A DNA stretch of 64,000 bases, taken from Ewingella americana. Lineage in GTDB: Bacteria; Pseudomonadota; Gammaproteobacteria; Enterobacterales; Enterobacteriaceae. How positions within the stretch are numbered: the stretch's first letter is position 1; each line of letters opens with the position of its first letter. Under the pieces are notes generated by a model. That model was not told the DNA's origin, did no database searches, and was given only the letters and a program-made list of their open reading frames with translations. The stretch lies in the NCBI RefSeq assembly GCF_006438725.1, contig NZ_RCZD01000005.1, positions 293,588 through 357,587 of the forward strand, written 5' to 3'. A program made the position numbers and the translations under genes. Below, piece after piece: positions 6,458 through 32,721 of this stretch.

Positions 6458-8833
6458 TTAGAAAGCACGTTGATAAGGCAGTATGCCGCTGGCCAACATT
6501 TCATTGGTCCCGAGGCTATGATTACCGCTCAGGCCACGAAGTTCAATGTTGAATGAAATCTTGTTGTCATACTTGCTTTCGGATTTGGTTAAGTCGTAAG
6601 TCGTGATTTTACGCTCGTACCCCAAGTTAACCGCCCAACAGCAAGTATTGTATTGCAGACCCAGTAACTGATCGGCCGATTGCTGCGCTTTGATGTCGTA
6701 ATAATAGGCTCCGACAATCGCCCAACGGTCAGCGATCGGCCAGCTGGCAATCCCACCGACCTGCGAAATCCCATTCTGATAGCCAGGGTTAGTCACCTGA
6801 GGCAGCGTAGCCTGAATATACTCCGGGCTGGCATAACGGTAGCTCAACTGCACCATTTTTTCTGAATCACCGCGGTATTCCAGTACAGCATCACCAAGCG
6901 CCAGGGCGTCAAGGCGAGTGTCATACTGTGCGCCACCGCGGACACCCCAGAAATCATTGATTTTATAGTAGGAATCACCGGCCCATACCAGGCTACCGGT
7001 GTCGTCACTTTTATCCAGCGCACTGTTCTGATCGCCAGTACGTGGAGGCGTAAAGTAATAAATCTGGCCAAGAGAGGCATTGAAGCGCTCAACCAGGCCA
7101 TCATCATAAATACGCGTCGTCAAACCACTGGCTACCTGATTGGCAGAAGCGATGCGGTCCAGGCCGCTGTAGCTCTTATCGCGGAACAGGCCAGTATAGT
7201 CAGACTGTAATAACGTCGAGTCATAGGTATTGATTGAACTCTGATCACGGTAAGGGATGTAAAGGTATTGTGCCCGAGGTTCGAGGGTTTGCGTGAAACC
7301 TTGATCCCAGTCCATGGTGCGTTCAAACACCATTTTACCGTCGCTTTTGAACTCTGGCATCGTACGGTTAACCGTATTTTTCAGTTTGGAGTCTGGATTG
7401 GCAACGAAGTAAGCATCAGGAATATCCTGCTGATAATGGGTCGTCATCAATTTGACTTCATTATTCAGACTACCCAGGCTGTTGCTTAATGGCAGGCTCA
7501 GGGTTGGCTCTAAGTGTAACCGTACTGCATCAGGCTGATCCGGATTGACGTTGGTAAACTTCACAGCCTGGCTGTAGATATGAAGGTCAAACGGGCCGAG
7601 ATCATTTTTATAATAATTGACGTCGAATTGCGGCATGGCACGGTAAACGTTACCGGTGTCATAGCCACTGAATATTTGGAATTGCTTGCTGGCTAAGGTC
7701 GCATCCCAGTTTTCATTGGCATAGCCGACGCTGAATTTCTGCGCCGCATAGCCATCGGTGGTCGAGCCATATTTGGAGTCAAAATCGGTGAAGTAATAGG
7801 GGTCACTGACCTTAGTGTAGTCGACGTTAAAGCGCCAAACTTGATCCACCACGCCTGAGTGGGCCCAATAGTACATCCAGCGCTTGGTTTGATCGCTGGT
7901 GCGGCCTTCACTCTTAACGTATTCATCATCGATTTTCTTATCGTCACCGAGGTAGTCGAACTCCATCATACCGGCACCGGCAACGGTCAGGTAACGGAAT
8001 TCATTCTGCAGTTGCAGACCACGGTTACTCATGTAATTCGGCGTGATGGTGGCGTCGTAGTTAGGCGCAATGTTCCAGTAATAGGGGACAGTGACACCAA
8101 AGCCATTGTTGCTGCTGTAGTTGGCGTTCGGGATCAGGAAGCCGGAGCGACGCTTATTCCCAATAGGCAACTGCATATACGGGCTGTAAAACACTGGCAC
8201 CGGCCCGATGTGGAAACGGGCATTCCAGATCTCAGCCACTTCTTCCTGGCGGTCTTCGATGATCTGCGAGCCAACTACGCTCCAACTGTTATCACCGGGC
8301 AAGCAGGAGGTAAATGTCCCGTTATCAAGAATGGTGTAACGGTTGCTATCACGCTGCTTCATTTTATCTGCAACGCCACGCCCCTGACGGCCGACCATCT
8401 GATAATCGCCGTTTTCCACGTCGGTATCTTTGGTTGTCAGGTTCGAGAAACCTTTCGGGCCGTTGAGCTTGACTTGATTGTCATTGTATTTAACGTTACC
8501 GGTCGCCGTCACGGTGCGAGTCGGTGTGGCCTGTCCAGGGTTCGCGATCTGATTCAGCTGAACCTGGTCGGCATCAAGGGTAGCATTACCCTGCTCGACG
8601 TTAACTTTTCCGCTAAACAGGGCATTGTCCGGGTAGTTCCCGGTGGCCTGGTCAGCTTGAATATGAACGGGAAGTTTATTCGGGTCGCCGGTAACCAGCG
8701 GTTTATCATAGGTTGGAACGCCAAGCATACATTGCGCAGCGAGATCGGCGAAAGCCCCATGGCTGTATAGGGCCGTCCAGATCGTGGTGGCCAGCAGCGT
8801 GGGGAAGCGAGTTTTCAGACGTCTGTTTTTCAT
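6458..8833 (-). CDS. lptD: LPS-assembly outer-membrane protein LptD
   Basis: Outer-membrane beta-barrel that, with the lipoprotein LptE, inserts lipopolysaccharide into the outer leaflet. The 791-residue precursor has a signal peptide ending near Ala29, an N-terminal periplasmic OstA/beta-taco domain that receives LPS from LptA (about residues 50-200), and a large barrel rich in aromatic beta strands. The four cysteines needed for the interlocking disulfides are visible: Cys35 (AAQC), one in FTSCLPG, and the adjacent pair in NTCCWAV. E. coli LptD has 784 residues and the alignment is co-linear. It is the first gene of the lptD-surA-pdxA-rsmA-apaGH operon, divergent from djlA. I looked for a sigmaE promoter upstream but found no convincing match. 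Confidence 0.98.
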
Positions 8834-24862: not shown

Positions 24863-28930
<4,068 letters not shown>

Positions 28931-28971
28931 GGGTAGGTTCCTTGTCTGCTTTACTTTCACGCCGTGGAGGT

Positions 28972-29674: not shown

Positions 29675-30639
29675 ATGACTGAAAAATTAGCTGATATTCA
29701 GGCTGAAATAACGGCTTCGGCCGGGCATTTACGTAATGTCGATCTTAATTTACTGACCGTCTTTGACGCCGTTATGCAATTACAGAATATTACCCGTGCC
29801 TCGCAAATGCTGGGAATGTCTCAACCGGCCGTGAGCAACGCGGTATCGCGTTTGAAAATCATGTTTAACGATGATTTGTTTGTGCGCAGTGGACGGGGCA
29901 TTCAGCCAACAACACGCGCCAGACAGTTGTTTGGGCCCATCCGTCAGGCACTGCAAACCGTAATGAATGAATTGCCGGGAGCAGGTTTTGACCCGCGCGT
30001 TAGCCAGCGCCAGTTTAATATTGCAATATGCAGTCCTCTGGATATTCTTCTCACTGCCGATATTATTAATTCGCTGGAAGCGACATCATCTTCTGTCAGC
30101 GTTAAGTTTCAAACGCAAATTTCAGACAGCATTGAAAATCAGTTACGTTATCAGAATATTGAATTTGTGATTGGTTATCGTCGCTTTGAGGGGACTGATT
30201 TTTGCAATCAAGAACTATTTACTGATGAACTGGTATTAGTGGCAGCACAAAACCATCCCCGAGTCAGTCCACATATGTCTGATGAGACATATCTTAATGA
30301 ACAACATGCTGTTGTGATGTTAGATCGCCATTACTCATTCAGCCTTCCTTATTATGAATCTCCCTCCGTTCGTCCATTAATTGCGTTTCAGGGTACCGAT
30401 TTAAACAGTGTAATGAATATTGTTTCGAGAACACATATGGTGGCGCTGGTTCCACGCTGGTTCCACGCTGGTTGGCGCAGGCGCACGCCGGGATATTAAA
30501 CCTGACGGTCGTGCCCATTTCCTGGATGAATAATCAGTTGCCATGTTATTTGACCTGGCATGAATCTTCCTGCAAAGACAAAGGCAATATGTGGATGAAG
30601 TCACTGCTTGATACTTGCGAAGTGATTCGGTGCAAGTAA
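29675..30639 (+). pseudogene. leuO: LysR-type regulator LeuO, frameshifted near the C-terminus
   Basis: LeuO is a LysR-type regulator and H-NS antagonist that controls many silenced loci. The first 260 or so residues are intact: the winged helix (VDLNLLTVFDAVMQLQNITR, QPAVSNAVSRLK, DLFVRSGRGIQPT) and most of the effector domain. The reading frame as written stops at 30499, after VALVPRW followed by an unrelated tail. The cause is an 11-bp tandem duplication of TTCCACGCTGG at 30450-30460 and 30461-30471. Skipping one copy restores the family ending: WLAQAHAGILNLTVVPIS and then CYLTWHESSCKDKGNMWMKS, stopping at TAA 30637-30639. That gives 317 residues against 314 in E. coli. GGAG precedes the ATG. 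Either a genuine inactivation or a sequencing/assembly error. Confidence 0.88.
30448..30471 (+). repeat. 11-bp tandem duplication within leuO
   Basis: Two head-to-tail copies of GGTTCCACGCT followed by a partial third (GGTT). The second copy is absent from the reading frame expected for LeuO and shifts it. Confidence 0.93.
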
Positions 30640-30924
30640 TACCAGAAAGGGGATTATCTCCCACACCAATGTCTTAAGTGGTTTTTTATCCTGCGCGAAA
30701 TCTTTCAATTTTTGCGTCTTTCGCGCAGGATCTATGTCCTTGATTGATACTCCGCCTTTTTTTCCTTTTCTCGTTTCCCTCCGATTTCTGAACCATAATT
30801 TGATTTGCCTGCCGTACCAGACTCGGTAGACTACGCAAATTGTTAATCATGGTGAGCAAATGCAAATAAATCCTCGGGTTTATTGCGGCTGGCTGTTCTT
30901 CTTTCCCCCCTCAGGCCGCAGGTT

Positions 30925-32721
30925 ATGAACACGACTTTAACTGATTATCATCTTGTTGCTCGTTTCAGACAGCAACGGTCTTCACTGCCTGACCATACTG
31001 CTTTTCGTGAATGGTCTTTGGAACGTGAAACCACACTTACCTGGCTTGAAGCCGGTAAAAAAGTCGATCACCTGTCCCGCTTGTTATTGCAGTTGGGCGT
31101 TGAGACACAAGAGCGTGTCGCCATTTGCGGCAGTAATGGTATGGCGTGGACGCTGGCGGATATGGCCATTTTGCAGTTGCGTGCCATCACCGTACCCATT
31201 TATGCCACCAATACGGCTGCGCAGTCGGCTTATGTCTTAAATGATGCCGGGATCCGCACGTTGTTTATCCTCGGCCAGGCACAGTTTGATGCCGCCCTGC
31301 AACTGCGTGAACTCTGCCCGCAGTTGCAGCATATCCTGGTACTTGATGCCGATATCGATCTGCGCGGCGTCGCGATGGCCCGCCACGTCCATGCGCTGAG
31401 CGTGCCAGATATCTTGCTGGATGAGATGTTGCAGGCCCGTATCGCTGAGCGCAATTTGGAGGATCTGTTTACCCTGATTTACACCTCGGGCACGACTGGT
31501 GAACCCAAAGGGGTGATGCTCGATTACCGCAGTATTGGCACACAACTCCAGCAACATGAACAGCGACTGGCGCTGTCAGAGCGCGATGTTTCATTGTGCT
31601 TCCTGCCACTGGCGCATGTTTTTGAACGTGCATGGAGTTTTTTCGTCATGCATTGCGGGGCACAGAACGTTTACCTGCGGGATACCGATGCGGTGCGCGA
31701 CGCGTTGCAAGCGATCAAACCGACCGTGATGTGTGCGGTGCCACGTTTTTATGAAAAGGTCTTCAGCGCCATTAATCAGAAAGTCGCGCACTCCGGTTAT
31801 ATCAAAAAGAAGCTGTTCCATTGGGCGATGGCTTGTGGGCGCGAGAAATTTCTGTCTGAAAGGCAAGGTGCTACCCCTTCATGGTGGCAGAAACGCCAGT
31901 ATGCGCTGGCGGATAAACTGGTGCTGGGCAAACTGCGCAGTGTATTGGGCGGTAATCTGCGTTTTCTGCCTGCGGCAGGCGCCAGCCTCGACGATAATGT
32001 GATCTTGTTCTTCGAATCCATTGGTCTGAAGATCAAATACGGCTACGGTCTGACGGAAACCTGTGCGACCGTGACCTGTTGGGAAGAGGAAAATTTCCAG
32101 TTTGGTTCGGTCGGGACAGCGCTACCCCTGATTGAAGTGCGTATTGGTGAGGAAAACGAAATTCAGGTGCGCGGACCGACGCTGTTTCGCGGTTATTTCA
32201 ATAAGCCGCAAGAGACTGCTGACAGTTTTACAGCCGATGGTTGGTTCAAAACCGGCGACGCAGGAAAGTGCGATGAGCAAGGTAATCTGTTTGTCACCGA
32301 GCGTTTAAAAGATTTGATGAAAACGTCGGGCGGTAAATATATCGCGCCACAGCGCATAGAAGGAACGTTGGTTCAGGACCGCTATATTGAACAGGCGGCG
32401 GTGATTGCCGACGCTAAGCATTTTGTTTCCGCACTTATTGTGCCGGATTTTAATGCGCTGATTGAATATGCCCAGATGCACCATATTGATTACCTTAACC
32501 GCGAAAGCCTGCTGAAGAATGAGCAGATCCTATCGCTGTTTACTTATCGTGTGCGCGAAATCCAGCATGAGTTGGCAAGCTATGAGCAGGTGAAAAAATT
32601 CGCTTTGCTGACGTCGCCGTTTACCATGGAAGCTGGCGAGTTGACGCCAACACTGAAGCTGCGGCGCAAAATTATCCTGCAGAGATATAAAAAAGAGGTC
32701 GACACTTTCTATTGTGATTAA
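30925..32721 (+). CDS. Long-chain fatty acyl-CoA ligase (AMP-dependent synthetase, FAA1/FadD15 type)
   Basis: A 598-residue acyl-adenylate-forming enzyme. It has the P-loop-like AMP motif YTSGTTGEPKGV, the A4/A5 motif KYGYGLTET, the GWFKTGDAG motif, and a catalytic lysine region near the C-terminus (LTPTLKLRRK). The length and the internal DYRSIGTQL and CFLPLAHVFERAW segments place it in the COG1022 group (eukaryote-like long-chain acyl-CoA synthetases), distinct from E. coli FadD. The expected reaction is ATP + CoA + long-chain fatty acid to acyl-CoA; the actual chain length and role are unknown. No E. coli K-12 gene occupies this place between leuO and ilvI. The start MNTTLTDYHLV was chosen over an upstream in-frame start because family homology begins there; the ribosome-binding site is weak. 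A terminator follows. Confidence 0.9.
   Translation: MNTTLTDYHLVARFRQQRSSLPDHTAFREWSLERETTLTWLEAGKKVDHLSRLLLQLGVETQERVAICGSNGMAWTLADMAILQLRAITVPIYATNTAAQSAYVLNDAGIRTLFILGQAQFDAALQLRELCPQLQHILVLDADIDLRGVAMARHVHALSVPDILLDEMLQARIAERNLEDLFTLIYTSGTTGEPKGVMLDYRSIGTQLQQHEQRLALSERDVSLCFLPLAHVFERAWSFFVMHCGAQNVYLRDTDAVRDALQAIKPTVMCAVPRFYEKVFSAINQKVAHSGYIKKKLFHWAMACGREKFLSERQGATPSWWQKRQYALADKLVLGKLRSVLGGNLRFLPAAGASLDDNVILFFESIGLKIKYGYGLTETCATVTCWEEENFQFGSVGTALPLIEVRIGEENEIQVRGPTLFRGYFNKPQETADSFTADGWFKTGDAGKCDEQGNLFVTERLKDLMKTSGGKYIAPQRIEGTLVQDRYIEQAAVIADAKHFVSALIVPDFNALIEYAQMHHIDYLNRESLLKNEQILSLFTYRVREIQHELASYEQVKKFALLTSPFTMEAGELTPTLKLRRKIILQRYKKEVDTFYCD

What the first reader, a model, noticed from the sequence alone, without database searches (positions are those of the whole stretch)
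29675..30639. leuO disrupted by an exact 11-bp tandem duplication
The repeat TTCCACGCTGG occurs twice in a row (30450-30471). Reading through gives VALVPRW followed by a foreign tail and a stop at 30499. Deleting one copy restores the LeuO C-terminus for another 50 residues up to TAA 30637. The frame remains otherwise intact, so the event is recent, a reversible phase-variation-like tract, or a sequencing error. LeuO is a global antagonist of H-NS silencing, so loss could be selected in culture.
Basis: seen in the sequence. Interest (0 to 1): 0.72.

Follow-up and report, generated by a model that had tools for sequence, protein, structure and literature searches.

The report
Recently frameshifted leuO regulator gene
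In this Ewingella-like bacterium an 11-base stretch near the end of the regulator gene leuO has been copied once in tandem, which shifts the reading frame and cuts off the last sixth of the protein; it looks like an ordinary, fairly recent loss of one gene.

Summary
The frame runs 274 codons, the last 12 foreign, and stops at 30497-30499. In 18 of 18 relatives read (of 20 loci found) the gene stays open for 297-319 codons; the array's 19-base core is absent from 96 of 99 fetched loci, the other three being the window's own. Both leuO pieces keep all 96 residues that are invariant in 14 relatives and hold no stop, so the break is young relative to species divergence, although the downstream piece shows a mild excess of changes. 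Most likely cause: slipped-strand duplication between two 8-base repeats three bases apart, produced by the codons of a conserved stretch. Most likely consequence: loss of LeuO function, since the removed end carries eight invariant residues and no second LeuO was found. A same-genus genome (G002) lacks leuO. Phase variation, selection in culture and assembly error cannot be decided without reads or sister strains. Ordinary pseudogene; low interest.

The parts
29675..30499 (+). Interrupted leuO frame, 274 codons; residues 1-262 in the LeuO frame, last 12 foreign
   Evidence: (LeuO equivalog 403.5 bits, cut-off 262)
30444..30473 (+). Perfect tandem array, 2.7 copies of an 11-base unit
30472..30639 (+). 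Downstream piece of leuO, 55 codons plus TAA in the relatives' frame, out of frame with the upstream piece
27359..28960 (-). leuA, the divergent neighbour; open
30883..32721 (+). AMP-binding (acyl-CoA ligase type) gene between leuO and ilvI; open

Best explanation
A recent loss-of-function allele of an ordinary LeuO gene. Shown: an exact 11-base tandem duplication shifts the frame after residue 262 and cuts off the last 52-55 residues of the LysR effector-binding domain. Inferred: it arose by slipped-strand replication between two copies of CGCTGGTT lying three bases apart, a repeat produced by the codons of a conserved stretch (A-L-V-P-R-W-L); the truncated protein is misfolded or inactive, so LeuO's antagonism of H-NS at its targets is lost, although the DNA-binding domain may still be made. 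No second LeuO was found in this genome.
For: Array and frame. Relatives: 18 of 18 read are open for 297-319 codons; period-11 arrays occur only in the window's own copies among the loci held; the 19-base core is absent from 96 of 99 loci, the other three being the window's own. Family scan: of 150 rows listed the window's open frame is the shortest, 283 codons stop to stop, the next 305 and the longest 400. Eight residues invariant in 14 relatives lie in the lost part (L271, Y288, L289, W291, D298, G300, W303, L308 of L017). Little decay: 0 of 96 invariant residues changed; 10 window-only against 16 MAG-only changes in the N part, dN/dS 0.054 to the MAG. Slippage-prone context: lag-11 identity runs of 8 in 4 of 18 relatives and 6 in one more. 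No second LeuO: the only other match at E <= 1e-20 in the genome is a 32% identical protein.
Against: The downstream piece shows more change than expected of a very recent break: 7 window-only against 2 MAG-only changes, Fisher p = 0.06 with the N part; 4 of 29 sites invariant in eight close relatives changed (I276V, P279S, S296C, L314I) against 5 of 155 in the N part, p = 0.036; the same measure for each close relative left out gave 0-2 in that part. This may mean some time without constraint, or a variable C-terminus. The lag-11 run is only 2 in E. americana and 4 in the MAG, so the slippage context is not general in the nearest genomes. No reads, no second strain. Inactivity of the short protein is inferred; structure prediction could not be run.
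Confidence: 0.8

Rival explanations
1. Reversible slippage switch: gain and loss of one 11-base unit turns LeuO off and on in the population.
For: Repeat context favouring slippage; in-frame tandem duplications that revert are described for pneumococcal capsule genes (passages of PMC4243769).
Against: No relative read carries the array; one state seen in one genome. In Xenorhabdus lrp, mutations including tandem duplications did not revert by restoration of the gene (passages of PMC6786866).
Confidence: 0.06
2. Assembly or sequencing error.
For: One draft genome of 39 contigs; no reads available.
Against: A 30-base array is shorter than a normal read (recalled), and the neighbouring leuA, leuB, leuC, leuD, ilvI and ilvH frames are open; the change is an exact unit and not a homopolymer error.
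Confidence: 0.08
3. Older loss fixed in the species, with the downstream piece already drifting.
For: Excess of changes in the downstream piece, p = 0.04-0.06; a same-genus genome without leuO.
Against: N part shows no excess, and no stop or change at 96 invariant residues; the array copies are identical.
Confidence: 0.2
4. The short protein is a working variant LeuO with a new C-terminal tail.
For: DNA-binding domain and most of the effector domain remain; N part still under constraint.
Against: Eight invariant residues lost; no listed frame of 150 is as short.
Confidence: 0.06

Closest known systems
LeuO (E. coli K-12 b0076; NCBIfam NF007063.1)
   Same: Sequence over residues 15-263, divergent leuA on one side, ilvI further on
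   Different: Frame shifted after residue 262; the K-12 protein has 314 residues and its site shows a lag-11 run of at most 3 (by eye on the letters); an AMP-binding gene lies between leuO and ilvI here
Tandem duplications in lrp of Xenorhabdus nematophila (PMC6786866, passages read)
   Same: A global regulator of an enterobacterium lost by a tandem duplication within the gene
   Different: There 26-116 bases, many independent mutations and a measured stationary-phase advantage; here 11 bases, one genome, no phenotype
Reversible sequence duplications in pneumococcal capsule genes (Waite 2001, 2003; seen only as cited in PMC4243769)
   Same: Tandem duplication within a reading frame
   Different: Reversion reported there; not tested here

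Membership tests
LeuO (LysR-type regulator) | Score above the curated cut-off of the LeuO equivalog model | tested here: met
   403.5 bits against 262
LeuO (LysR-type regulator) | Place beside divergent leuA and before ilvIH | tested here: met
   with an extra AMP-binding gene before ilvI
LeuO (LysR-type regulator) | Complete effector-binding domain | tested here: not met
   PF03466 matched to profile position 162 of 209, against 192 and 196 in L017 and L018; 52-55 residues cut off. Filed as a broken leuO gene, not as a working LeuO.
LeuO (LysR-type regulator) | Antagonism of H-NS silencing | not testable with these tools
   needs an assay
Pseudogene by frameshift | Frame interrupted relative to intact orthologues | tested here: met
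   18 of 18 relatives read are uninterrupted
Pseudogene by frameshift | Relaxed selection since the break | tested here: inconclusive
   none in the N part; weak excess in the downstream piece, p = 0.04-0.06
Phase-variable contingency locus | More than one repeat-number state in the species or culture | not testable with these tools
   one genome of the species held, no reads
Phase-variable contingency locus | Repeat array kept in related species | tested here: not met
   no period-11 array in the other loci held; 19-base core absent from 96 of 99 loci

The most novel reading that the evidence does not exclude
The codons for A-L-V-P-R-W-L build a direct repeat of up to 8 bases at 11-base spacing in leuO of this species and of some Rahnella, making the C-terminus of LeuO a codon-encoded slippage site at which the H-NS antagonist is switched off and on by gain and loss of one 11-base unit.
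Probability: 0.05. Interest if true: 0.5.

Novelty: new member of a known kind. Interest (0 to 1): 0.13.

Why it matters
It is one more natural loss of a usually kept regulator: of 6 genomes held for this genus one (this) has leuO broken and one (G002) has no match, whereas 5,314 of 5,426 E. coli genomes hold at least 80% of leuO in one place (small frameshifts would not show there). If reversible it would be a switch on H-NS silencing; nothing here shows that.

Tried and rejected
Megablast of the gene against E. coli genomes: no match, so the window is not E. coli. Search for a second LeuO in the genome: only a 32% identical protein besides the window's copy at E <= 1e-20. A generally error-ridden region was set aside because neighbouring genes are open. 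Programmed ribosomal frameshifting at the array was considered by eye only (no slippery heptamer seen); not tested. Loss of leuO throughout the genus was rejected: G001, G003 and G005 have it uninterrupted, G004 has a match that begins at a contig end (open frame 195), and only G002 has none. In G002 leuA and the AMP-binding gene are neighbours, with 221 bases that match nothing in the window between flanks matching up to about 29263 and from about 30674. Papers: listings (4 papers; 18 of 19; 3; 4) showed no title or abstract on such a leuO allele; some searches were listings for background. Passages only were read in PMC6786866, PMC6267812, PMC6797219, PMC4243769, PMC13410964, PMC12267313 and PMC9499468; no paper was read whole. 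Structure prediction of a relative was interrupted and then switched off, so which structural elements are lost was not shown.

Full report
Where it is. The window is G000:C35:293588-357587 of an unnamed 5.35 Mb, 39-contig genome. Five other genomes of its genus are held. The leuO DNA is 77% identical to the MAG's and 71-74% to those of G001, G004 and G005, so I take this for a distinct species of the Ewingella group. It has no megablast match in E. coli.

The observation. The repeat is at the stated place. The perfect array covers 30444-30473, 2.7 copies of 11 bases, the highest-scoring of 22 tandem repeat rows in the window. The frame 29675-30499 codes for 274 residues, the last 12 out of frame. 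The product scores 403.5 bits against the LeuO equivalog model (cut-off 262) and matches the E. coli LeuO structures 6gz0 and 6gz1 over residues 110-264. Ten random surrogates of the window held no array of 30 bases or more. In 384 kb of the genome (window plus 16 stretches of 20 kb) there were 8 distinct perfect arrays with a unit of 9 or more: five with a unit of 9, one of 15, one that is seven copies of ACAGA and appears to lie between genes, and this one, the only 11. Shorter units and the rest of the genome were not scanned.

Relatives. The search for related loci gave 20 loci. I left out L036, a distant Polaromonas protein, and L034, which begins at a contig end; the other 18 are open for 297-319 codons from the start of the match. 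Period-11 arrays occur only in the window's own copies among the loci held, and the 19-base core is absent from 96 of 99 loci, the other three being the window's own. Of 30 loci from the genus and family scans, the motif was found in 27 with 52-53 residues after its W; L041, L062 and L067 were missed, of which L041 had been read with 52. In the family scan 179 of 392 genomes had a match; in the 150 rows listed the window's frame is the shortest, 283 codons stop to stop, the next 305. One other listed row, G065, has an internal TAG. Rows not listed were not examined there; one of them, G004, has an open frame of 195 because its contig begins inside the gene.

Age. The N piece (255 codons) has 10 changes unique to the window against 16 unique to the MAG, and dN/dS to the MAG is 0.054. 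The 88 and 8 residues invariant in 14 relatives (13 of the 18, plus G001) are all kept in the N and downstream pieces. In a simulation, 10 or fewer changes in the N piece have probability 0.03 at a neutral divergence of 0.03, and keeping 96 invariant residues has probability 0.015 at 0.02. This bound is rough, as the 10 counts only changes where the outgroups agree. The absence of stops is weak evidence: 46% of simulated pairs lack one at 0.02. Synonymous divergence to the MAG is about 1.7, so the break is young on that scale but could be far older than the culture. Against a very recent break, the downstream piece has a mild excess of changes: 7 against 2, p = 0.06; 4 of 29 against 5 of 155 sites invariant in eight close relatives, p = 0.036; each close relative left out in turn gave 0-2 in that part. 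The two tests overlap and were not corrected.

Mechanism (inferred). The array implies that CGCTGGTT stood twice with three bases between. That repeat follows from the codons of A-L-V-P-R-W-L. The lag-11 run is 8 in 4 of 18 relatives (the same 8 bases in L023 and L025; CGCGCTGG in L021 and L024, all Rahnella), 6 in L020 and 1-5 in the other 13, including 4 in the MAG and 2 in E. americana. Slipped-strand duplication is the simplest cause.

Consequence. The cut removes 52-55 residues of the effector-binding domain with 8 invariant residues. I infer loss of function. The only other match in the genome at E <= 1e-20 is 32% identical, so no backup LeuO was found. [quoted passage not shown] coli LeuO at wild-type levels had negligible effect on bgl while overexpression relieves silencing (passages of PMC9499468); both fit a tolerable loss.

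Other losses. G002 of the same genus has no LeuO match. Its leuA and AMP-binding gene are neighbours, with 221 bases unmatched to the window between flanks that match up to about 29263 and from about 30674. In E. coli 5,345 of 5,426 genomes have a leuO match and 5,314 cover at least 80% in one place.

Verdict. Ordinary; interest 0.13.

Noticed in passing
L079 (G002:C5:172500-182500), about 6842-7062: In this same-genus genome leuO is absent between leuA and the AMP-binding gene; flanks match the window on both sides.
   Followed up: partly
window 30883-32721; L079 5057-6586: An AMP-binding gene sits between leuO and ilvI here and in the genus genomes viewed, not in E. coli K-12; in G002 its frame is 509 codons against 598 from the window's matching ATG and lacks the C-terminal domain match, so it may be broken there.
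   Followed up: partly
L095 17881-17915 (G000:C34): Seven perfect copies of ACAGA just after the stop of a 504-codon transporter-like frame and before an oppositely directed 337-codon frame; a possible variable simple-sequence site.
   Followed up: no
window 30688-30731: A 13-base inverted repeat (ATCCTGCGCGAAA / TTTCGCGCAGGAT) between leuO and the AMP-binding gene, seen by eye; the terminator scan did not list it.
   Followed up: no
G065:C5:205123-205839: Another genome of the family whose LeuO match has one internal TAG.
   Followed up: no
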